64,000 nt of DNA from Odoribacter sp. AF15-53 (GTDB taxonomy: Bacteria; Bacteroidota; Bacteroidia; Bacteroidales; Marinifilaceae), in contig NZ_QUHC01000011.1 of assembly GCF_003479425.1 (NCBI RefSeq), positions 1 to 64,000 of the forward strand, written 5' to 3'. The stretch's first letter is position 1. Each line of letters begins with the position of its first letter. Below, piece after piece: positions 2,996 to 35,542 of the stretch. A program made the translations under genes and the position numbers. Under the pieces are notes generated by a model. That model saw only the letters and a program-made list of their open reading frames with translations, was not told where the DNA came from and searched no databases.

Positions 2996-3055
2996 GATGG
3001 TGGAAATATTTAAATTTTCAGTTTATATATACAATTCAGAAATTCTCCACCAACC
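2996..3055. repeat. Inverted-repeat module, copy A (GGTGGAAAT...ATTCTCCACC)
   Basis: About 60 bp with outer arms GATGGTGGAAAT (left) and ATTCTCCACCAACC (right) around an AT-rich centre containing TATATATA. The same architecture recurs at 3159-3222 and 5378-5436. This copy lies 18 nt upstream of the DUF3871 start on the minus strand. An operator with dyad symmetry or a recombination site are the two plausible readings. Confidence 0.55.
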
Positions 3056-3939: not shown

Positions 3940-4410
3940 CTACTCTTCATCAAACAGTATGGCGAATTTCCATACAGTTAGCGTGTACTCGTTCCCGTTG
4001 TAACTGGCTGGTGTTTCCATGCTACCACAGCAAATAATAGTTTGCCCGTCTAGGATAGAAAACAAATCCTCGTAACTGGTATTTACTGCCAGAGGGTAAA
4101 TGTATTGTAGCCTGTCTTTATACTGTTCCTCTATAACTGGATCACACGGGACATCATCGGGTGTTATCCCCGTTTGCTTGGAACCTTTCACCATGTTACG
4201 GATTCTAATATCTACCCTTTCATCCCCTTTCATGCAGGAGAGGGAAATACTTGTTGGGTCTTCACCCTTGAATCCAATAACTTTTAGAATATCACCCACT
4301 TTTGGAGGTGCTGGTAACGTGACCAGTTTGCCCGCCAGTTTAGATTTACTAATGTCTGAAAAACATTTAGGCATGATAACCTTGTTCACTTCAAAATCTT
4401 TTTTTAACAT
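3940..4410 (-). CDS. Hypothetical protein
   Basis: 156 aa, not recognised. It starts 'MLKKDFEVNKVIMPKCF' and is mixed alpha/beta without signal peptide, membrane segment or clear catalytic motif. A 'PPKVGDILKVIGF' stretch in the middle resembles a small beta-barrel turn. It sits on the same strand as the RadC-like and DUF3871 genes and probably belongs to the element backbone. The 257 nt between it and the RadC-like start hold no gene that I can support. Confidence 0.5.
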   Translation of the reverse strand: MLKKDFEVNKVIMPKCFSDISKSKLAGKLVTLPAPPKVGDILKVIGFKGEDPTSISLSCMKGDERVDIRIRNMVKGSKQTGITPDDVPCDPVIEEQYKDRLQYIYPLAVNTSYEDLFSILDGQTIICCGSMETPASYNGNEYTLTVWKFAILFDEE

Positions 4411-4594
4411 GATAATTTGTTTTTAATTAATTGATTTTTTTCCAGAGATGGGTGGGGGATGTAAATGGTACACTACCCTAGCATGGAACACTCTCTATAT
4501 ATAATGCCAACCTGAAATTAAAGGGGAGGGGGTGTTTTATAGAGGATTCTCTATTTTAACCACTCTAATTCTCTCTATATATAGAATATATTCT

Positions 4595-4602
4595 TAACTT
4601 TG
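4595..4602 (+). promoter_or_regulatory. TAnnTTTG promoter box (TAACTTTG)
   Basis: Perfect match to the Bacteroidota -7 consensus TAnnTTTG, 27 nt before the ATG at 4630. AAAGGAG at 4618-4624 serves as ribosome binding site. It makes any start upstream of 4630 unlikely. Confidence 0.6.
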
Positions 4603-4629
4603 TATAGTTGTATCAATCAAAGGAGAAGC

Positions 4630-4806
4630 ATGGAGATACGTTTTGAAACTAAAGCGGAAAGTCAAGCCAGACGAGAGAGGGAGGCTCTGGAAAGAACCCC
4701 TAACGAGAGATTTATATTCTTTTTGCGTCTGGTCGCCGAAATTGGCAAGTTTCAAACTTTGAAGGAGAGAACAAGTAACAATTTTATTCTTGAACGGAAA
4801 AGATGA
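4630..4806 (+). CDS. Small protein coupled to a nucleotidyltransferase (putative antitoxin-like partner)
   Basis: 58 aa from the ATG at 4630 (MEIRFETKAESQARREREAL...), highly charged and helical, ending in basic residues. The stop TGA overlaps the start of the next gene (ATGA at 4803-4806), indicating translational coupling. A small charged protein immediately before a MNT/AbiEii-type nucleotidyltransferase is the usual arrangement of toxin-antitoxin pairs, but the protein itself is not recognised, so the antitoxin role is inference. Confidence 0.55.
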   Translation: MEIRFETKAESQARREREALERTPNERFIFFLRLVAEIGKFQTLKERTSNNFILERKR

Positions 4807-5285
4807 ACCTTAATTTCGAAGAAGATGTATGGATGTTTATATCCTTGGCACAAAAGTATCAGGTCAGGATGTTAATGGTAGGTGGTGGTGCTGTCAATTT
4901 TTACGGCTACCAGCGTCACTCTGCCGATGTCGATTTCTGGATTGATACCACCCCCTCTAACTTGCTAGCTTTAAGAAATGCCTTGAATGAACTTGGTTAC
5001 GAGTTCGATGATTTTCCAGAGGACGTGAAAAACGGTCAACAAAATATATCCATAAAGATAAGTCCCGTTATAGATATAGAATTAATCACTTCCTTTAATC
5101 CAGGCAGGAGTTTTGATGAATGTTACGAGCAAAGATACTCTGCCACGAACACTGTAAACGGTGAAACTTTCTCTTATGACGTGATAGCCTTTAACGATTT
5201 AATTAATAGCAAAATAAAGGCTGGACGTCCTAAAGATTTGTATGACGTGATAGAACTCAGGAAGATTCAAGAGAAGAGCAAGTAA
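4803..5285 (+). CDS. Nucleotidyltransferase (MNT/AbiEii-like fold)
   Basis: 160 aa. The nucleotidyltransferase signature is present: 'VGGGAVNFYGY' at 26-36 followed by 'ADVDF' (Asp42, Asp44 as metal ligands), with a third acidic position in 'VIDIELI' near residue 90. C-terminal 'KAGRPKDLYDVIEL' is the hallmark of this family (R.KD..D). Family members transfer nucleotides to tRNA or partner proteins, or are toxins in type IV-like systems. Here it is paired with the 58-aa gene upstream. The ancestral 3' end of the neighbouring HTH gene lies just after its stop. Confidence 0.75.
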   Translation: MNLNFEEDVWMFISLAQKYQVRMLMVGGGAVNFYGYQRHSADVDFWIDTTPSNLLALRNALNELGYEFDDFPEDVKNGQQNISIKISPVIDIELITSFNPGRSFDECYEQRYSATNTVNGETFSYDVIAFNDLINSKIKAGRPKDLYDVIELRKIQEKSK

Positions 5286-5289
5286 GTAC

Positions 5290-5377
5290 TTATACATGCA
5301 GCACTGGCAACTTCACTTTTTTTTCTAGCTGGGCAACATTCTCTTTATAACATTTAGTATTTATCAATGAAGTAAGG
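5290..5377 (-). pseudogene. Displaced original 3' end of the HTH gene at 9231-10142
   Basis: Read on the minus strand this stretch encodes LTSLINTKCYKE (identical to the HTH protein near its C-terminus) and continues in frame as NVAQLEKKVKLPVLHV to a stop at 5290. At 9254 the intact HTH gene instead runs into a different short tail (RVKIFIK). The simplest reading is that the HTH gene once ended here and a 3.9 kb insertion separated the last codons from the body. Confidence 0.75.
5340..5377. repeat. 38-bp direct repeat, left copy
   Basis: Perfect 38-bp match to 9254-9291 (TCTCTTTATAAC...AAGTAAGG). It bounds the Fic-primase-RT unit on the left. It lies inside HTH coding sequence, so it is a duplicated target or recombination core, not a terminal repeat belonging only to the insert. 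Confidence 0.9.
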
Positions 5378-5436
5378 GTTGGTGGAAAATTTCTAAAATG
5401 TATATACCGACTAGAATTTTATATTTTCCCACCAGA
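5378..5436. repeat. Inverted-repeat module, copy C
   Basis: Arms GTTGGTGGAAAATTT and ATATTTTCCCACCAGA around a centre containing TGTATATACCGA. It starts exactly at the end of the left 38-bp repeat. Its right arm overlaps the expected -33 region of the Fic promoter (box at 5457), so a bound repressor would block that promoter. Confidence 0.55.
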
Positions 5437-5456
5437 TATAAACAGTGATAATTTCT

Positions 5457-5464
5457 TACCTTTG
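5457..5464 (+). promoter_or_regulatory. TAnnTTTG promoter box for fic (TACCTTTG)
   Basis: Perfect TAnnTTTG match 23 nt before the Fic start codon at 5488. It is probably the main promoter of the Fic-primase-RT transcription unit. Confidence 0.6.
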
Positions 5465-5487
5465 TAATCAACTAAAAATATGGCAAC

Positions 5488-6249
5488 ATGAATAGTAAGT
5501 TGGTTGATTTATTAAGAGAGGTGGATTCATTGAAAGTGCGGTTATCTTCCTTACGTCCTTTACCTGTCGAGGCATTAAAGAAAATTCAGGATGCTTTAGA
5601 TATCGAGTACACTTACGAGAGTAACCGTATAGAAGGGAACACGCTTACATTGCAGGAAACGGCACTTGTTGTCAATGAAGGAATCACTATTTCTGGTAAA
5701 TCCATGCGTGAACACTTGGAGGCAATCAACCATGCAGAAGCTATTGACTATATAAAGGAGGTTGCTAAACAGGATATTGAAATAAGTCAAAGAACTATCA
5801 AGGAGATTCATGCACTCGTGTTACACGGTATAGATAGGGAGAATGCTGGAAGTTATAGAACCGTACCCGTGATGATTTCGGGTAGCACTCATGTACCACC
5901 TCAACCTTATTTGTTGGAGAAACTAATGGAAGATTTCATGCTGACATTTCAAAGTATGGAAAAAGAAAACGTTCATCCAGTTATTATTGCCGCCTATTTG
6001 CATGATGAACTGGTGAGGATACATCCATTTATAGATGGCAACGGGCGTACTTCTCGACTTCTGATGAACCTCTACCTGTTGCAAAAAGGTTATACCATTG
6101 TTACCCTGAAAAGTGATAATGACATGAAGTTACGTTATTATAAAGCTTTGGAGTCTTCTCACACGGAACAACAACATGATGATTTCTACTTGTTGGTTGC
6201 CGAAGCTGAAAAAGCATCTCTAGAGAGGTATATTTCTATTCTGGGATAA
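5488..6249 (+). CDS. Fic family AMPylase-type protein with N-terminal inhibitory motif
   Basis: 253 aa. The complete Fic active-site motif HPFIDGNGRTSR is at 179-190, so the catalytic His and the phosphate-binding GNGR are intact. An inhibitory helix motif S-x-x-x-E-G-N (SNRIEGN, 45-51) lies N-terminal, which is the class II arrangement in which the Glu blocks ATP binding until relieved. Fic proteins transfer AMP or other groups to hydroxyl side chains of target proteins; the target here is unknown. It is the first gene of the inserted 3.9 kb unit, 33 nt before the primase-like gene, which suggests joint expression. Confidence 0.85.
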   Translation: MNSKLVDLLREVDSLKVRLSSLRPLPVEALKKIQDALDIEYTYESNRIEGNTLTLQETALVVNEGITISGKSMREHLEAINHAEAIDYIKEVAKQDIEISQRTIKEIHALVLHGIDRENAGSYRTVPVMISGSTHVPPQPYLLEKLMEDFMLTFQSMEKENVHPVIIAAYLHDELVRIHPFIDGNGRTSRLLMNLYLLQKGYTIVTLKSDNDMKLRYYKALESSHTEQQHDDFYLLVAEAEKASLERYISILG

Positions 6250-6282
6250 ATTAAAATGTCGTGAAAATATTTAGACAAAAAC

Positions 6283-7326
6283 ATGGAAGCAATAGAAAAT
6301 CTCTCGCCTAGATATTTAGAATCTTCAATTTTATTAGAAAAAGAAACATCTTTCTATCAACACAAAACTGCAAAAAAAGCAAGTAATTTGACCATCATAG
6401 AAGTTTTGAATTCCATCCAGCAAGGTAAATATATTAAAGAAGTTTCTAAAATTAGAGATTTAGTAGCCTCACAAAGAATTGACGAATCCAAAATATTGAA
6501 AAGTAGATTACCCGCCGTCACATTCAGTGGTCTTTTTAAAAATGGACACCAAAAATCTAATCTATATTACTATAATAATATCATTGTCTTCGATATTGAT
6601 AAAATGAGTAAGCAAGAAGTTGATTCTATATATCAGAAGTTGAGTAAAGATGAATATATCATATCTCATTGGTTATCTCCTTCAGGAAATGGAATTAAAG
6701 GATTAGTATATATTGTGTACTCTCATTGTATTACTTTGAAAGAAATTCATACATACCATAAAGCCGCCTTTAAAAAATTACAAGAATATTTTCTGAAACA
6801 ATATCAAATAGAATTAGATTCTTCTGGAAATGACACATCCCGCTTATGCTATCTCTCGTATGATCCTCTACTTAGAATAAAAAATAAATTTAAGCCATTT
6901 ATATATAATGAAAGTATTGAATCTTTTTCCCCACCCCCAAACTCTCGTTCTCGAAAAAAGAAGATTATAAATAATAATGAACAAAATATTTACTCCATAA
7001 GTAAATATTTTTTGAATCCAGAAGGTAAGAACAAACCACAACATCGAGAAATATTAAATACTCTTATTCGTTTTCTGAGAAAGAAACATTTATCTATTAC
7101 AGAAAATTATGAACAATGGTTTCGTGTTGCCTTTGCAATTGCAAATACTTTTTCTTGTGATATTGGATTAAAATATTATTTGCAATTATGCGAATTAGAT
7201 GGGATTAGATTTGATGAAATTGGCAGTCGAAAAATTTTAAAATATTGTTATGAAAATAGTAATGGAGATATTACTTTTGCAACAATACTTTTTTATGCAC
7301 AAAAAGTAGGATTTAAAACGGGGTGA
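6283..7326 (+). CDS. BT4734/VirE_N-type AEP-like primase protein
   Basis: 347 aa. The N-terminal half matches the BT4734-like (VirE N-terminal) domain. Archaeo-eukaryotic-primase-like signatures are visible: DID at 104-106 in 'IIVFDIDK' (motif I), SPSGNGIKG at 132-140 (motif II, with Lys where His is common) and DTSRLCYLSYDP from 184 (motif III). About 235-345 resembles a PriCT-type primase C-terminal helical domain. Such proteins normally accompany VirE/DUF3987 helicase-primases on elements, yet none is present in this window; the next gene is a reverse transcriptase. A nucleic-acid priming role is inferred from family. Confidence 0.75.
   Translation: MEAIENLSPRYLESSILLEKETSFYQHKTAKKASNLTIIEVLNSIQQGKYIKEVSKIRDLVASQRIDESKILKSRLPAVTFSGLFKNGHQKSNLYYYNNIIVFDIDKMSKQEVDSIYQKLSKDEYIISHWLSPSGNGIKGLVYIVYSHCITLKEIHTYHKAAFKKLQEYFLKQYQIELDSSGNDTSRLCYLSYDPLLRIKNKFKPFIYNESIESFSPPPNSRSRKKKIINNNEQNIYSISKYFLNPEGKNKPQHREILNTLIRFLRKKHLSITENYEQWFRVAFAIANTFSCDIGLKYYLQLCELDGIRFDEIGSRKILKYCYENSNGDITFATILFYAQKVGFKTG
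7272..7279 (+). promoter_or_regulatory. Possible internal promoter before the RT-associated RNA (TACTTTTG)
   Basis: Perfect TAnnTTTG match within the last codons of the primase-like gene, 36 bp before the left arm of the terminal stem at 7315. A TTG at 7245-7247 could serve as a weak -33 element, though the spacing is a little long. In AT-rich DNA this may be chance. Confidence 0.35.
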
Positions 7327-7470
7327 TTACGAAAGTTTGGTTTAGTTCACTAAATCAAAAGTGTCAATGGAATAAAGGTCTTGTTTTATCGAGGACTCCA
7401 TTAGGAATTCGGAAACACATAAGTTTGTTGTCAGAATGGAATTTTATTAGTCTCGAAATTACCCCGTTTT
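7315..7470 (+). ncRNA. Candidate structured RNA associated with the reverse transcriptase
   Basis: The region between primase and RT closes on itself. AAAACGGGGT (7315-7324) is exactly complementary to ACCCCGTTTT (7461-7470), and pairing continues inward through GATT/AATT (with a G-U), one A-A mismatch, then CGA/TCG, giving about 17 paired positions. Inside, 7336-7345 and 7350-7359 form a 10-bp hairpin with a UUCA loop. AATGGA (7366-7371) with TCCATT (7397-7402), stacked on GUCUU/AGGAC, forms a second. Retrons and DRT systems place a structured RNA immediately 5' of the RT, sometimes with such terminal complementary arms. No transcript evidence is available. Confidence 0.55.
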
Positions 7471-7475
7471 TATGA
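7323..7475 (+). CDS. 50-codon open frame bridging primase and RT (small protein or repeat-unit ORF)
   Basis: A GTG overlapping the primase stop (GTGA, 7323-7326) opens a frame of 50 codons that ends by ATGA overlap with the RT start (7472-7475). The product would run VITKVWFSSLNQKCQ...SLEITPFL. Perfect junctions at both ends argue for a real small gene; the strong RNA structure in the same place argues for an RNA function. Both could hold. The product is not recognised. Confidence 0.35.
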   Translation: MITKVWFSSLNQKCQWNKGLVLSRTPLGIRKHISLLSEWNFISLEITPFL

Positions 7476-9229
7476 TACAATTTGAAGATTACATCTCAGC
7501 AGATAATATAATCGACATCCTTTGTCGGCTAAGAGCTAAACTTGCAGACCAAAGGCATAAAAAGCAATTATTACAACATCTAGCTATATATAAAGAAACA
7601 AAAAAGACAGGACAAGATAGGCTATCTGCAATTAATTCTATTTTGCCCCCCAGAAGTAAATGGGTTTCATTAAAAGAAAAGACAAGAACGAGAGAATTTA
7701 TAACACATGATAACAGAAAATACAAACAACCGATTTCCTCTTTTGCAAAAAATAAAAAAAGTATCAAATTAACTATTCACTTCCATCAAAAATATAACTG
7801 CAATTATGAGTATTTGAATAAACTGAATGATTTTATCACATTAGTAAAAAAACATTGCCTCGACCCTAATTATCAAATAAATCATCCCCAAATATATTCT
7901 GTTTCTAAAAGTAAAATCATTGAAGACCGTATTGAATGTAGACCATTATGTGTATTTAATCAATTAGTAGATAAAGTTATAATTTGTCTTGTTAATCAAT
8001 ACCTTTCAAAATTATTCGATCCTTTTTTTTACTCAGAATCATTAGCATTTAGATATAAACGAGAATACCATGGAGAAAATAAATACACTTCCCACCATGA
8101 TGCAATATACAGAATTCAAGAGTTTGTACTAAAAAATAAAAAAAGGAATATCTACGTCGCTGAATGCGATATGGAAAAATTTTATGATTCAGTAAATCAC
8201 AAAATTGTGAAAAAATCTTTCTATACCTTGTTAAGACTGGCTCAAAAAAGTAATCCAGATATAAACTTTTCCTGTGTCCGCCGAATATTTGAAAAATATT
8301 TGCGATGCTACAATTTTCAAAGAGATGTTTATAAATTAAATAACAATCCAGAATTTTGGAAGAAACAAGAAGAGAAGAAAGGTGTTTTTTCATGGGTAAG
8401 AAATGAATTATTGAAACATGGGTTTTATAAAAACGAAAGATCATTAATTCATAGCCATATAGGAGTACCACAAGGAGGAGCTCTTTCTGGATTAATTGCT
8501 AACATCGTGTTAAATAATATAGATCAAGAAATTATAAAAAAAATAGCGAACAAAAATGTTTTATACATACGCTATTGCGATGACATGATTCTTCTAACAA
8601 CCAACAAAAGACATTGTAAAACAATTCTCAACCTATATACTAAAAACTTGGAAAAATTAAAACTTGTTCCACATCCCTTTAAAGAGATTGACTCAAGTTC
8701 TAATTTCTGGAAAGAAAAATCTAAAGCTCCTTACAAATGGGATCCTATAAATAGACCCTGGATTAGTTTTGTTGGCTACGAAATTAAAAGGAATGGGGAT
8801 ACTCGTGTAAGAAAAAAATCCATTCGAAAAGAGTTAACGAAACAAACCCAAGTCGTTAAAGAAATTATGTGTTTCCTTAAAAATAAAGAAAGAGTAACAA
8901 ATAATAGTATACAAGAATCATTAACCAATAGATTAATAGGAATGTCTATTGGACGAGTCAATCTTTGGAATTATACTACAATGAAAAATGAATTATGTTG
9001 GATTAATGGTTTTCATGCTCTTACTTACAATAAATTTGCATCAAAACAGATGAAAATGTTAGATGCTCATAGAAATATTTTATTAAAAAAAGTTCACTAC
9101 AATTTACCTCATACGGGAATACCCCAAAATAAAACAATTCTCTCAAAACAATCCCTAAAGCATCAACGATTCTATGGGAAACCATATAGCTATTATTATC
9201 ATTACATCAAAAATTTCAAAAAGAACTAG
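7472..9229 (+). CDS. Reverse transcriptase with YCDD active site (non-retron, possible DRT/unknown-group type)
   Basis: 585 aa. RT blocks appear in order: 'IECRPLCVFNQLVDK' about 154-168, motif A 'VAECDMEKFYDSV' with Asp233, 'GVPQGGALSGLIANIVLNN' at 331-349, motif C 'YIRYCDDMILL' with the catalytic YCDD at 368-371, and 'ISFVGYEIKRNGDTRVRKKS' near 431-450. The PQGG...LIAN block is closer to group II-like and unknown-group RTs than to retron RTs. There is no maturase or HNH domain and no intron RNA around it. An N-terminal extension of about 130 residues and a C-terminal helical region of about 130 residues are unassigned. YCDD, in place of the usual YADD, is shared with some defence-associated RTs such as DRT2. 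It is the last gene of the inserted unit, and its stop lies 24 nt before the right 38-bp repeat. Confidence 0.85.
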   Translation: MIQFEDYISADNIIDILCRLRAKLADQRHKKQLLQHLAIYKETKKTGQDRLSAINSILPPRSKWVSLKEKTRTREFITHDNRKYKQPISSFAKNKKSIKLTIHFHQKYNCNYEYLNKLNDFITLVKKHCLDPNYQINHPQIYSVSKSKIIEDRIECRPLCVFNQLVDKVIICLVNQYLSKLFDPFFYSESLAFRYKREYHGENKYTSHHDAIYRIQEFVLKNKKRNIYVAECDMEKFYDSVNHKIVKKSFYTLLRLAQKSNPDINFSCVRRIFEKYLRCYNFQRDVYKLNNNPEFWKKQEEKKGVFSWVRNELLKHGFYKNERSLIHSHIGVPQGGALSGLIANIVLNNIDQEIIKKIANKNVLYIRYCDDMILLTTNKRHCKTILNLYTKNLEKLKLVPHPFKEIDSSSNFWKEKSKAPYKWDPINRPWISFVGYEIKRNGDTRVRKKSIRKELTKQTQVVKEIMCFLKNKERVTNNSIQESLTNRLIGMSIGRVNLWNYTTMKNELCWINGFHALTYNKFASKQMKMLDAHRNILLKKVHYNLPHTGIPQNKTILSKQSLKHQRFYGKPYSYYYHYIKNFKKN

Positions 9230-9230
9230 C

Positions 9231-10142
9231 TTACTTGATAAATATTTTAACTCTCTCTTTATAACATTTAGTATTTATCAATGAAGTAAGGAAATATTGT
9301 AAACTATGTATTTGAGGTGGCAGGTTAGGGCATAATTTAGGTAGGTTATATTTCAACGAATAATAGTTATAATGCTTCTTGGCGTTTCTACCTCCATTTT
9401 TAACTGCCGTTTCCAGTTCCTCTTCTGGTTGATCGTACCTGTGAATACATAACACTTCCATTAGCTTGAAATCGTATGGAGGTGGGATAACATTCTTCTC
9501 TATACAATAGTTATATATAATATCGTATTTCTCTCTGGCTAGTTTGTCAAAAGTTCTCAGTCCAAAATTACTTTTAGTATGTGGAGTATCCAGTATAATA
9601 TTACAATCCGTGATAAGGAAGAAATTATTAACTTCCACCAGTTTATGATGCTTTATTGCCAAATCTATATATTTCTTTACGGTTTTGGGAGATAAATTCA
9701 ATCGCCTTGATATTTCTGTCTTGTTATAGTAAATAATATTGGTATTATTGATACATAAACATTTAAGTAGCACAAGGAAGGCTTTCAATTCAACAGGAAT
9801 ATCTTCCAGTAATAAATCTTTCTTGAACCTGACCCAGTTATTCTTTGGAATGTCTACATGATATGTAACAGGTGTGGTCAACTGTCCTTCATTGTTCCTG
9901 TAATTATACTCTTTACGCAGGAAGCCTAAATCTTCAAATTTGGCAGTGTACTTGGAAATGGTATCCACGTCTTTAATGCCAGTAACCTCACGAAGTGTTT
10001 CCCGCAGTACATGGGATTCACCTGTTTCATAATCTGATTTAAAAAGTAACCATGTAAATGTATAAGTTTCATCCAGGTTCAGTTTACCTGCAATATCTCT
10101 AGTTATGATTCTATAATCCTTCTTTTCTTCTTCATTCGCCAT
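9231..10142 (-). CDS. Winged-helix/HTH protein (replication-initiator-like), C-terminus replaced
   Basis: 303 aa. The N-terminal part 'MANEEEKKDYRIITRDIAGKL' and the central 'IYYNKTEISRRLNLSPKTVKKYIDLA' (about 137-162) form a clear helix-turn-helix. Layout resembles the Bacteroidota element helix-turn-helix proteins that open with a short winged-helix domain and may act in replication control. The last seven residues (RVKIFIK) come from the inserted DNA. The native tail survives at 5290-5377, so the gene body is nearly intact after the insertion. It is convergent with the RT gene, the two stops being one base apart. Confidence 0.65.
   Translation of the reverse strand: MANEEEKKDYRIITRDIAGKLNLDETYTFTWLLFKSDYETGESHVLRETLREVTGIKDVDTISKYTAKFEDLGFLRKEYNYRNNEGQLTTPVTYHVDIPKNNWVRFKKDLLLEDIPVELKAFLVLLKCLCINNTNIIYYNKTEISRRLNLSPKTVKKYIDLAIKHHKLVEVNNFFLITDCNIILDTPHTKSNFGLRTFDKLAREKYDIIYNYCIEKNVIPPPYDFKLMEVLCIHRYDQPEEELETAVKNGGRNAKKHYNYYSLKYNLPKLCPNLPPQIHSLQYFLTSLINTKCYKERVKIFIK
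9254..9291. repeat. 38-bp direct repeat, right copy
   Basis: Perfect copy of 5340-5377. It lies within the HTH gene (codes for LTSLINTKCYKE on the minus strand) and marks the right border of the Fic-primase-RT unit. Confidence 0.9.
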
Positions 10143-10411
10143 TATTAATTCCAGTTTGAAACAACCATCTAAAAATGATCTATGGATTCACTGGTTCTGC
10201 TTTTATTTAGTGGGATAGGCTGGCAAGCCTGTAACACCAATACTAGTTATTAGTTAAATAGTTAATAGTATGTACCCTATCAATTCCCTAAAAGCATACC
10301 CCGTCAAATCCCTAATTTTTAAATATTGATCTTTATGGAGGGATAATCTCTCTATTTCAGGTTGGAATCTCTGGTTACATGAAATACAGCCATATCATGT
10401 AGCTTTATAGA

Positions 10412-11831: not shown

Positions 11832-11942
11832 AGTTTACCAGTTCGTTTTCATATCGTGGAGAAGTCTTTTTCTTCACGTGATAATGTATTACCCTCTTGT
11901 CTCGTTAAAGAAAACAGTAGTAAATTATATTTTACATATTTT

Positions 11943-15766: not shown

Positions 15767-16334
15767 ATCATTTAAGTATTATAATAAATAAAATATTTAT
15801 TTGTAATACTGCTGTTCGTCTTCTTAATTAACCCTTATCATCATCAGGTGAAGCTAAACTGTACATCATTTCAAAGAACTCGTGTCGTTCTTTACAGAAG
15901 ACCAGTCGAGGGATCTCAATGCCACCTATGACCTTGCCACCTTTTCGACACTACAAAGGTAAAAAATTACAATTTATCACTTGTTGCCAGTCCGAACATT
16001 TTAGTGGGGGAAGCTGTATTTAGTTCGGAATATTTATAAATGTATAAATCACCTAATGTCAGTGAACGATATATGATCATACTCCCGAAAATGAAGATTC
16101 GGTGAGTTTTTTACAGAATAGGCATGTAAAAGAAATTAGATGGTATTTTTTCATCCACTATATTCTATTTGAATTTGGTTTTAAAAAGGAAAGGTAGTAC
16201 CTCCATTGAATTGGAAATACTACCTATTATGTTATAATTAATTGAAATTCAGGTGAATAATAAACAGAAAATACATTGTTATATACCATTCTGGCTAAAA
16301 CTCACCTTACTAAATTTATCAACTTTAGATGCAA
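15767..16334. other. 568-nt intergenic region with promoter and gene-fragment traces
   Basis: On the minus strand, a perfect TAnnTTTG box (plus-strand CAAAGGTA, 15954-15961) precedes a 40-codon open frame without ATG (15828-15950; ...GGKVIGGIEIPRLVF...FFEMMYSLASPDDDKG) that looks like the end of a decayed gene. A hairpin AGGTAGTA/TACTACCT (16192-16225) follows the integrase stop and may be its terminator. Confidence 0.4.
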
Positions 16335-17552
16335 CTAAAGTAAATTACTCATAGCTTCATCCATTTGCTTATCATCAAACTTACTAAGATATATTTCTGT
16401 TGTCTTTATATCTTGGTGTCCTAATGCTTGGGAGATTAGAGCTATATTAACACCAGTATTCTTCAAAATGCTAGCAAATGAATGCCTAGCAACATAAGTT
16501 GTTACATCTGCATCTATTTCCAATTCCGAAGCAAGAAGTTTCAACTCCTTATTGATCTTAGCAAGCATCTTGTGGAGCCTATTTTTCTTTTGTACCGATG
16601 TTTTATGCACTCTATTATCATAGATTGGGAAAAGATAGCCAGCTTCCTTCTGGTAAGGGGCATACTTCTTTATTATCTCTTTTGCCTGCTCACATAACTT
16701 AAAATTAATCGCTCCATGAGTCTTCTGCCTGTGATAACGAAGTCTTCCCCTGTGTACATTATAGGAGGTCAAGTTAGCCATATCTACTAGTGAAATACCG
16801 CCACTCAAATAAGCAAAAGTAAATATATCACGAGTAAATTCCCTTATGAAAGTAGCATTTATGGTTTCCGTGGTGATAATCTTTATCATATCCTCTTTAG
16901 ATAATGCTCTCTTTCTAGTTGAGGTATCAAATTTACTTACCTTATATTCATCAAAAGGATAGTATTTCTTATTTACAATTTTAGCCTCGATAGCCTTATT
17001 AAATGTACTCCGTAAAGTTCTAAAAAGTACGCTTAAAGTTGTCCCCTTACACTTCTTTCCTACAAGCCAACTTTCATACCGTTTTAACCAAGCAACATCT
17101 ATTGAACTAAAAGGAATATCTAAATTAGAGGAAGTGAAATCCTTTAATGAATTATAGGAATATTTATAAACCAATCTATTCCCCTCATTTCCAGAATCTC
17201 TAAAACTAACCAACAACTCTTTATAAAACTCTCCCACCGTCTTATTTACTAGCTTTACTTTCTTACTTTCCACTAGCAATGCTGCCGTGTACTCCTTTTG
17301 CTCTGCTACAAATTCCAGTATCTGACGCTGATACTCAACTTGTTTATCCAAAATAATCTTCTCTATTAATTCCTTATTAGGACATCTAGGGGTTGGTTTA
17401 TTCTTTTCAAAATCCCAATATTTAGGAAAGATAGCAATACCCAAACTTACATACTTTGGTTTTCTATCTTTTGTAACCCGAAGCATTAAAAGGGATTTTC
17501 CATTAGAAAGCACCTTAGATTTGTAACAAACCACTGATACTGAAGCATTCAT
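16335..17552 (-). CDS. Tyrosine site-specific integrase
   Basis: 405 aa with the Bacteroidota phage-integrase layout: N-terminal arm-binding domain ('MNASVSVVCYKSKVLSNGKS'), SAM-like core-binding domain around 100-200, then the catalytic domain. 'TTYVARHSFAS' carries the R-H of box II, 'GHQDIKTTEIYLSKF' carries the second H and the nucleophilic Tyr near residue 388, and 'RYHRQKT' the Lys. The usual Arg of box I is not obvious in 'FAYLSGGISLVDMANL', as in related Bacteroidota integrases. It starts about 100 bp from tRNA-Pro and reads away from it. Confidence 0.9.
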   Translation of the reverse strand: MNASVSVVCYKSKVLSNGKSLLMLRVTKDRKPKYVSLGIAIFPKYWDFEKNKPTPRCPNKELIEKIILDKQVEYQRQILEFVAEQKEYTAALLVESKKVKLVNKTVGEFYKELLVSFRDSGNEGNRLVYKYSYNSLKDFTSSNLDIPFSSIDVAWLKRYESWLVGKKCKGTTLSVLFRTLRSTFNKAIEAKIVNKKYYPFDEYKVSKFDTSTRKRALSKEDMIKIITTETINATFIREFTRDIFTFAYLSGGISLVDMANLTSYNVHRGRLRYHRQKTHGAINFKLCEQAKEIIKKYAPYQKEAGYLFPIYDNRVHKTSVQKKNRLHKMLAKINKELKLLASELEIDADVTTYVARHSFASILKNTGVNIALISQALGHQDIKTTEIYLSKFDDKQMDEAMSNLL

Positions 17553-17653: not shown

Positions 17654-17728
17654 GTCGGGGTGACAGGATTCGAACCTGCGACCCTCTGCTCCCAAAGCAG
17701 ATGCGCTACCGGACTGCGCTACGCCCCG
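17654..17728 (-). tRNA. tRNA-Pro (anticodon TGG)
   Basis: Cloverleaf legible on the minus strand: acceptor CGGGGCG with CACCCCG, D arm, anticodon stem TCTGC/GCAGA with loop TTTGGGA (anticodon TGG), T arm GCAGG-TTCGAAT-CCTGT. CCA is not encoded. The 3' end faces the integrase, as expected for a tRNA-type attachment site. Confidence 0.95.
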
Positions 17729-35276: not shown

Positions 35277-35320
35277 AGATTTATATTGTATTAATATAAT
35301 ATCAAATTACAACTAAACAT

Positions 35321-35433
35321 CTCTTCTATCATCCGGACTTTAACCGTCGGTCTCAGAATTTCACTGAATCAGTCCCTCGAAAGGGAGTCGCGGACTTTAA
35401 CCGCCGGTAGGGAGTTGCACCCTGCCCCGAAGA
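35321..35433 (-). promoter_or_regulatory. FMN riboswitch (RFN element)
   Basis: Minus-strand sequence shows the RFN hallmarks in order: TTCGGGGCAGGGTG, CCTACCGGCGGT, AAAGTCCGCGA, GACCGACGGT, AAAGTCCGGATG and closing GAAGAG. Binds FMN and, with the downstream terminator, turns off the ribD-ribE-ribBA-ribH transcript when flavin is ample. Confidence 0.95.
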
Positions 35434-35542
35434 AACATTTTACAAATGCAAAAATAACAATATTTCTAATGATAACAAACAATCTTCAATTAATTAATGC
35501 TTTTTTTCTGCAATTCGACCCAACACCTCTCCGCTCCACACG

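What the first reader, a model, noticed from the sequence alone, without database searches (positions are those of the whole stretch)
5340..9291. 3.9 kb Fic + AEP-like primase + RNA + YCDD reverse transcriptase unit inserted into an HTH gene with 38-bp repeats
A perfect 38-bp direct repeat (5340-5377 and 9254-9291) brackets exactly Fic, primase, RT and the region between. The right copy lies inside the HTH gene near its 3' end. At the left copy the HTH frame continues 16 codons to its own stop (NVAQLEKKVKLPVLHV, ending 5290), while the present gene ends in a different tail. Thus an ancestral gene was split and largely repaired by the insert. 38 bp is too long for an ordinary transposition target duplication and no recombinase lies inside, so the mode of entry (att-core recombination, RT-mediated insertion, homologous capture) is open. 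The unit travels as a block and looks like a cargo system.
Basis: partly seen in the sequence, partly recalled or inferred. Interest (0 to 1): 0.85.

Follow-up and report, generated by a model that had tools for sequence, protein, structure and literature searches.

The report
Reverse-transcriptase defence cassette in island
A gut bacterium's mobile island carries a little-studied candidate anti-phage system (primase, structured RNA and reverse transcriptase) that landed beside an older toxin-like gene, and the matching 38-letter repeats around them look like pieces of one disrupted island gene rather than the ends of a travelling four-gene unit.

Summary
The repeat is real: 38/38 bp at 5340-5377 and 9254-9291, the only exact repeat of 25 bp or more in the window. 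Both copies are 3' ends of one HTH gene. Six inspected relatives have that gene uninterrupted, so an empty-site form exists.

The "four-part travelling unit" is not supported. The left junction (HTH 3' remnant, 57-bp palindrome, Fic) occurs at three related loci without primase or RT. Fic was not found at any of 64 related RT loci. G+C falls from 39% in Fic to 29% in primase-RNA-RT. The module is about 6250-9253: RT class UG39 plus a VirE/PriCT2 primase, both listed by PADLOC under DRT.

The new part is the RNA between them: a covarying closing stem (0 of 5000 arm swaps reach the real pairing; shifted controls show at most a small excess) and a loop motif in 26 of 39 same-strand loci against 0 of 190 control stretches. 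No held paper found discusses UG39.

Best reading: an RNA-guided reverse transcriptase with its own primase, loaded into a variable cargo slot of an integrase island; the repeats mark homologous exchange.

The parts
5290..5339 (-). Remnant of the natural 3' tail of the HTH gene (NVAQLEKKVKLPVLHV, stop)
   Evidence: Frame read directly; tail resembles those of relatives P0127 and L105
5340..5377 (-). Left copy of the 38-bp repeat = HTH gene 3' end
5378..5434 (+). 57-bp palindromic (inverted-repeat) element at the left junction; dispersed in related islands
   Evidence: RNA fold z -2.66, 1 of 200 shuffles as good
2998..3054 (-). Second, 79% identical copy of the palindromic element
5488..6249 (+). 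Fic-family gene, apparently not part of the UG39 module; 95-96% identical to Fic genes without UG39 in related genomes
   Evidence: Pfam Fic 2.5e-23; PADLOC SoFic 6e-35
6250..9253 (+). UG39 module (primase-RNA-RT), about 29% G+C, inferred to be separately acquired
   Evidence: Borders: end of Fic homology, start of HTH homology, G+C
6283..7326 (+). AEP-type primase, BT4734-like N-terminal plus weak PriCT_2 (PADLOC RTasVirE-PriCT2)
   Evidence: D104 and D106 conserved in 56 of 56 primases aligned
7315..7470 (+). Structured non-coding RNA: 14-bp closing stem 7315-7328/7457-7470, inner hairpin, loop motif UUGUCAGAAU
   Evidence: (z -3.3)
7472..9229 (+). Reverse transcriptase, class UG39, YCDD active site
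   Evidence: PADLOC RT_UG39 3e-187; D233, D370, D371 invariant in 24 of 24 aligned
9254..9291 (-). Right copy of the 38-bp repeat, inside the HTH gene
9231..10142 (-). HTH gene (weak DnaD-like helicase-loader match), 3' tail replaced by sequence downstream of the RT
4803..5285 (+). AbiEii/DUF6036-type nucleotidyltransferase, inferred older occupant of the cargo slot
   Evidence: similar gene beside the HTH gene in L114
16335..17552 (-). Tyrosine integrase of the island, next to tRNA-Pro 17654-17728

Best explanation
A UG39-type (candidate defence-associated) reverse transcriptase system of three parts, primase, structured RNA and RT, sits at about 6250-9253 as cargo in a variable slot of a tyrosine-integrase island of Butyricimonas. 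The 38-bp repeats are not its ends. Both are 3' ends of the island's HTH gene: the left is an old remnant already joined to a palindrome and Fic in related islands, the right belongs to the gene still present. Their identity, and the joining of the two island halves, is best explained by homologous exchange at this sequence (inferred). Proposed mechanism (inferred, by analogy with DRT2/DRT9/DRT10): the RT binds the RNA through its closed stem and copies an internal stretch into cDNA upon phage infection; the primase supplies the primer or the second strand; the DNA product or what it encodes stops the infected cell. Shown: gene content, conservation of catalytic residues, RNA structure, module borders, empty-site form. 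Not shown: expression, cDNA, defence.
For: RT_UG39 3e-187 and RTasVirE-PriCT2 1e-115. Primase in 57 of 64 related RT loci, 39 same-strand and 18 divergent; 3 of the 7 without it start inside the RT. RNA: 0 of 5000 permutations in each of two sets, with the same test on seven shifted stretches giving own-minus-swapped differences of at most 1.1 against 8.8 and 6.6 for the RNA; 11 of 26 pairs with double changes, 0 of 500 shuffles; motif 26 of 39 against 0 of 190. Fic in 0 of 64. 38-mer-like sequence, palindrome and Fic without UG39 at three loci. Six inspected HTH islands lack the insert and carry varied slot cargo. Allele test: the left 38-mer equals the version followed by the HTH body in 2 genomes (1 mismatch in a third), while the 4 palindrome-followed copies differ by 5-10 of 38, pointing to exchange with the intact gene. 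In PADLOC the next-best named RT models are Drt2 (8e-23) and UG17 (2e-21), which is DRT10, then Drt9 (1e-18).
Against: No genome was found with UG39 beside the HTH gene but without Fic, so the order of events is open; a circle carrying Fic plus UG39 that crossed over at the 38-mer would give the same product. Kinship with DRT2 is not uniform: in NCBIfam the group II maturase model scores higher (100 bits) than Drt2 (79 bits), both far below cut-off, and the best solved-structure matches are group II/retron-type RTs, with Drt2 fifth. The RNA model built from 12 RNAs matched 23 of 64 sources at the expected place (12 of them its own), plus one false match; it did not find the window's RNA or any divergent one at E <= 1. 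RNAalifold on an earlier alignment gave only 11 pairs without the closing stem; the structure tested was drawn by hand. The own 3' arm ranks first in 12 of 39 and 4 of 18 loci only, and 29th of 39 in L021 and L054. One of 14 shifted controls also came out low, 4 of 2000. The loop motif is absent from 18 of 18 divergent loci. Defence genes among neighbours were counted without a control set. No direct-repeat excess in the RNA.
Confidence: 0.66

Rival explanations
1. Single insertion of the whole 3.9-kb Fic-to-RT segment as a circle by crossover or site-specific recombination at a 38-bp core in the HTH gene.
For: The flank join restores a 312-aa HTH protein with a homologous natural tail; empty-site forms with one 38-mer exist; an AbiEii-type gene beside an intact HTH gene occurs in L114.
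Against: The left junction occurs with Fic but without UG39 in relatives; no recombinase among the three genes inside; Fic and UG39 differ in G+C and in nearest relatives; the block was found nowhere else in the genomes searched.
Confidence: 0.22
2. The 38-bp repeat is a target-site duplication made by RT-mediated (retrotransposon-like) insertion of the unit.
For: An RT and an RNA are inside; one copy at the empty site.
Against: 61 of 64 other UG39 loci show no exact flanking repeat of 19 bp or more in the sequence searched (up to 6 kb a side, often less); of the other three, L023's is an A-rich run, L056's overlaps a tRNA-Met 3' end and L025's lies among further repeats. The left border is a junction shared with loci that lack UG39. 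No endonuclease domain was detected in the RT.
Confidence: 0.03
3. The repeat or the mosaic is an assembly artefact.
For: Raw reads were not available; a 38-bp repeat can mislead assembly with very short words (recalled). No call supports it directly.
Against: The RT cluster (90% identity) that holds the window's RT has 44 members on 6 contigs from several sources, though the junctions there were not seen; left and right halves are each collinear with islands of relatives; 38 bp is shorter than usual assembly words (recalled).
Confidence: 0.05

Closest known systems
UG39 RT with VirE-PriCT2 primase (PADLOC-DB 2.0.0, DRT candidates)
   Same: RT and primase are near full-length matches; the pair is co-conserved.
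   Different: PADLOC lists proteins only; the structured RNA upstream of the RT is added here. Fic is not part of it in the loci seen.
DRT2 (UG2)
   Same: Second-best RT model in PADLOC; YCDD active site as stated in PMC12039810 (passages); RNA encoded in cis.
   Different: The DRT2 RNA is 280 nt with a 120-nt template; here about 125-176 nt with a long closing stem in most folds; a separate primase is added.
DRT10 (UG17) and DRT9
   Same: RTs with a structured RNA, 137 nt in DRT10 (PMC12632851, passages).
   Different: DRT10 has a SLATT protein and an A-B-A' template; no repeat excess was found here.
DRT7 (UG10) RT-primase
   Same: RT plus primase as one system (reference titles seen in PMC13174585; that the RT-primase title means DRT7 is my inference).
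   Different: In class 10 the primase is fused to the RT (PMC8934634, passage); here a separate BT4734-like gene, divergent in 18 of 57 loci.
UG28b of myRT
   Same: [quoted passage not shown] possibly the same group under another name (inference).
   Different: Not compared by sequence.

Membership tests
UG39 candidate DRT | RT matches the UG39 profile over full length | tested here: met
   3e-187, residues 3-581 of 585
UG39 candidate DRT | Linked VirE-PriCT2 primase with catalytic aspartates | tested here: met
   1e-115; D104/D106 56 of 56; that these are the catalytic pair follows the motif I description in PMC5862659 (passage)
UG39 candidate DRT | Anti-phage function | not testable with these tools
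   No experiment; neighbours include defence genes, counted without a control
Class 2 DRT (DRT2/9/10 type) | Conserved structured RNA encoded in cis | tested here: met
   the model did not reach the window's own RNA
Class 2 DRT (DRT2/9/10 type) | RNA-templated tandem-repeat cDNA | not testable with these tools
   Needs cDNA sequencing; A-B-A' repeat test negative
Class 2 DRT (DRT2/9/10 type) | RT falls in the class 2 clade | not tested
   No tree was built; only model scores
Retron | Retron-class RT and known msr-msd RNA | tested here: not met
   Best retron model listed 6e-12 against 3e-187 for UG39, NCBIfam retron 50 bits against cut-off 235; no retron RNA family at gathering threshold
Group II intron | Intron ribozyme RNA around the RT | tested here: not met
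   No Rfam group II family in the window at gathering threshold; maturase model 100 bits against cut-off 300
Diversity-generating retroelement | Template and variable repeats near the RT | tested here: inconclusive
   No such pair in the repeat scan of 3-12 kb; diverged or distant copies could be missed
Transposon with target-site duplication | Transposase inside and duplication at insertion | tested here: not met
   No transposase among the three genes inside; left junction shared with loci lacking UG39
att-flanked integrative cassette | Recombinase acting at the 38-bp core | tested here: inconclusive
   No recombinase among the genes inside; the island integrase at 16335-17552 lies near tRNA-Pro; its action on the 38-mer is unknown

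The most novel reading that the evidence does not exclude
UG39 is a reverse transcriptase that copies its own structured RNA with a dedicated AEP primase starting the cDNA or making the second strand: RNA-templated, primase-primed DNA synthesis as immunity, a priming route different from the protein-primed DRTs.
Probability: 0.3. Interest if true: 0.75.

Novelty: new variant of a known kind. Interest (0 to 1): 0.5.

Why it matters
It turns a catalogued gene pair, on which no held paper was found, into a testable three-part system with a mapped RNA. If the primase starts or completes the cDNA, it would be a priming route distinct from the protein-primed DRTs. The island comparison suggests how a defence cassette enters a slot beside a disrupted gene's 3' end, and warns that a perfect long direct repeat around several genes need not mark one mobile unit.

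Tried and rejected
RT in IMG/VR with the window protein alone found no relative, and with the alignment only distant RTs (29 loci, best E 2e-8). HTH in viral contigs, plasmids and phages: none. Window 4400-10200 by DNA in phages and plasmids: one weak partial match each. Exact flanking repeats at 64 UG39 loci: 27 bp at L025 and L056, 19 bp A-rich at L023, otherwise 18 bp or less, so repeats are not a general property of UG39. An integron-like attC reading of the L025 repeat was considered and dropped because further repeats (85 nt, 93%) lie beside it; this was not tested further. Telomerase-like A-B-A' repeats in the RNA: mean 5.07 against 4.69 in a simple two-base-block shuffle of 30 RNAs. 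RNA alignments A3-A5 misplaced the closing arms, partly through my trimming, and were set aside; RNAalifold on A5 gave 11 pairs without the closing stem. In one search the outer helix was searched for and then forced; in 3 of 35 RNAs (L035, L038, L051) the best helix was an inner one, not the full closing stem. Solved structures for the primase by sequence: none. Duplicate of the tRNA-Pro/Ser stretch elsewhere in the window: nothing over 13 bp. The defence-gene neighbourhood had no control set. No fold prediction and no RT tree was run.

Rows dropped: the same-strand set held 37 of 39 loci (L004 and L007 left out) plus the window and L165; one search lost one sequence at four shifts because its contig was too short. 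In one search 62 of the 64 loci plus window and L165 were searched. In one search 12 of the Flavobacteria-type RNAs were used. In one search, 99 of the 181 neighbour proteins listed were passed on; one search had skipped ten loci as near-duplicates or short, left out L064, and took at most two genes a side within 4 kb.
Full report
What is there. The 38-mer is the only exact repeat of 25 bp or more in the 64 kb. The RT is 100% identical to a cluster representative named for Butyricimonas synergistica, so the window is probably from that species; no whole genome is held for it. The genes lie in an island with a tyrosine integrase beside tRNA-Pro and tRNA-Ser. The island also carries a DUF3871 gene, a RadC-like gene and a DUF5131 gene.

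Empty sites. The HTH gene has a match in 7 of 56 genomes of the family, in 4 at 94-96% identity. I inspected six wider regions, L110-L115, from five genomes. In all six the HTH gene is uninterrupted and has its own tail, and none shows DNA similarity to the Fic-to-RT segment between the 38-mer copies. The best 38-mer match has 0 mismatches in two, 1 in one, and 7, 9 and 10 in the others. Between the conserved block (window up to about 4545) and the HTH 3' end they carry a KAP-like P-loop protein (twice), an HNH-type protein, an unknown 176-aa protein, an AbiEii-type gene as in the window, or nothing (KAP and HNH are my reading of the sequences, not a profile search). So the place is a cargo slot.

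The left half is older. A DNA search of 5300-9300 in the same 56 genomes found 5329-6250 at 96% in G402:C3, 5329-6263 at 95% in G402:C4 and 5353-6240 at 96% in G404:C16, that is HTH remnant or its end, palindrome and Fic, and Fic with part of its upstream at 90% in G403 and G401 (weaker Fic matches of 65-71% in G291, G434 and G412). In the first three the 18-bp end of the HTH gene is followed directly by the palindrome as in the window, and no HTH body was seen in the 13-17 kb fetched. G435 has AbiEii, tail, 38-mer-like sequence and palindrome without Fic in the 12 kb fetched. In this family the UG39 RT has one strong match, G107 at 46% (E 2.7e-144; the next of 18 genomes with any match is 4e-10). 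Fic and the RT part seem to have different histories: G+C 39% against 29%, and 95-96% against 48% identity to the nearest relatives found.

Why the two copies are identical. The four palindrome-followed copies elsewhere differ from the window 38-mer by 5, 8, 8 and 10 positions. HTH-followed copies differ by 0, 0, 1, 7, 9 and 10. The window's left copy thus carries a version seen elsewhere only at intact HTH genes. This points to crossover or conversion between the remnant and the intact gene (inference). It fits a homologous event better than a target duplication, but does not settle whether UG39 came with the crossover or separately.

The module. PADLOC places the RT in RT_UG39 and the primase in RTasVirE-PriCT2, both under DRT. 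A scan of genomes gave 72 loci; I treated L001-L064 as relatives by score. The primase is present in 57 of 64: 39 on the same strand and 18 divergent; three of the seven without it start inside the RT, so there is no upstream sequence to judge. Fic was found in 0 of 64 at E 1e-3 within the flanks held, which are short in many. The RT aspartates are conserved in 24 of 24 aligned, the primase aspartates in 56 of 56. Among 99 neighbour proteins, Pfam families seen include AAA_21 (6), N6_Mtase (4), Methylase_S (3), GmrSD (3), AIPR (2) and DarT (1), beside housekeeping genes (one each of PEP carboxylase, CTP synthase and others); PADLOC AriA models match 5-6. Two UG39 loci show signs of mobility: a 27-bp repeat at L056 overlaps the 3' end of a tRNA-Met gene, and L025 has a 53-nt, 91% repeat around the pair. 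The neighbourhood fits defence islands, but no control was run.

The RNA. The gap between primase and RT is 78-227 nt in same-strand loci other than L042, where the primase frame runs 17 nt past the RT start, and 144-224 nt in divergent loci. In the window a 14-bp stem closes 7315-7470, overlapping the last 12 nt of the primase gene; the fold of 7319-7466 is better than all 200 shuffles (z -3.3). If own 5' and 3' arms are compared with arms swapped between loci, the mean helix score is 26.4 against 17.6 (39 sequences) and 25.7 against 19.1 (18 divergent), with 0 of 5000 permutations reaching it in either set. The same test at seven shifted positions per set gave differences between -0.9 and +1.1; 13 of 14 were unremarkable (119 or more of 2000 permutations) and one, same-strand at shift 850, reached 4 of 2000 with a difference of 1.1. 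The window's own 3' arm ranks first of 39; the fit is not perfect everywhere, as L021 and L054 rank 29th. On 12 aligned RNAs with a hand-drawn structure 91.5% of cells pair, 11 of 26 pairs change on both sides, 0 of 500 shuffles reach any measure, and slid partners drop to 35-51%. A covariance model from these matched 23 of 64 sources at the expected place: its own 12, six close ones, and L042 (2e-7), L011 (3e-5), L165 (0.009), L006 (0.07) and L001 (0.24), plus one false match in L032; it did not find the window RNA or the divergent ones. A loop motif U(U/A)GU(U)CAGUAU, one mismatch allowed, lies in 26 of 39 same-strand RNAs including the window, 0 of 190 control stretches, and 0 of 18 divergent RNAs (1 of 90 controls there).

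Known and new. UG39 was a search term: two unrelated plant papers, and one DRT paper without the word; it is also absent from the main texts of PMC12632851 and PMC8934634. Searches on neighbouring terms listed nothing about it that I recognised. The UG/Abi classification paper I recall as the source of these names is not held, so I cannot say what it reports. The VirE_N link of a related class is in print (PMC8934634, passages). DRT2, DRT3, DRT9 and DRT10 are RNA-templated (PMC12039810, PMC13174585, PMC12632851; passages only). The gene pair is therefore known as a candidate; the conserved RNA and the dissection of the locus are, as far as I could search, new.

Kinship. PADLOC ranks Drt2, UG17 and Drt9 next after UG39 among named classes, which suggests class 2; but NCBIfam ranks the group II maturase above Drt2, and solved structures rank group II/retron-type RTs above Drt2. 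I did not build a tree.

Most likely function. By analogy with class 2 DRTs, the RT binds the RNA and copies part of it when a phage infects, and the primase primes or completes the DNA. Every step of this is inference; gene content, RNA conservation and module borders are what is shown.

Noticed in passing
window 2998-3054 and 5378-5434; copies in L110-L115, L159-L164, L166, L167: A 57-bp inverted-repeat element (72-97% identity, some copies partial) is dispersed through islands of the family and often sits at module borders, for example before and after Fic. It may be a terminator, a REP-like unit or a recombination site.
   Followed up: partly
L110-L115, slot corresponding to window 4545-9253: Variable cargo slot beside the HTH 3' end: KAP-like NTPase, HNH-type gene, unknown 176-aa gene, AbiEii-type gene, or empty; a likely defence hotspot.
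   Followed up: partly
L025:8695-8747 and 11849-11901: A UG39 primase-RT pair in a Bacteroidales MAG is bracketed by a 53-nt, 91% direct repeat (27 bp exact), beside a further 85-nt repeat pair.
   Followed up: partly
L056:5347-5373 and 16272-16298: 27-bp direct repeat around a UG39-containing segment; the second copy overlaps the 3' end of a tRNA-Met gene (16276-16350), suggesting a tRNA-integrated island.
   Followed up: partly
L159, L160 near window-equivalent 4817: The AbiEii-type gene is truncated and joined to the HTH remnant in both copies of the Fic-type island in one genome, a shared deletion.
   Followed up: no
window 35317-35438: FMN riboswitch on the minus strand (Rfam RF00050).
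   Followed up: no
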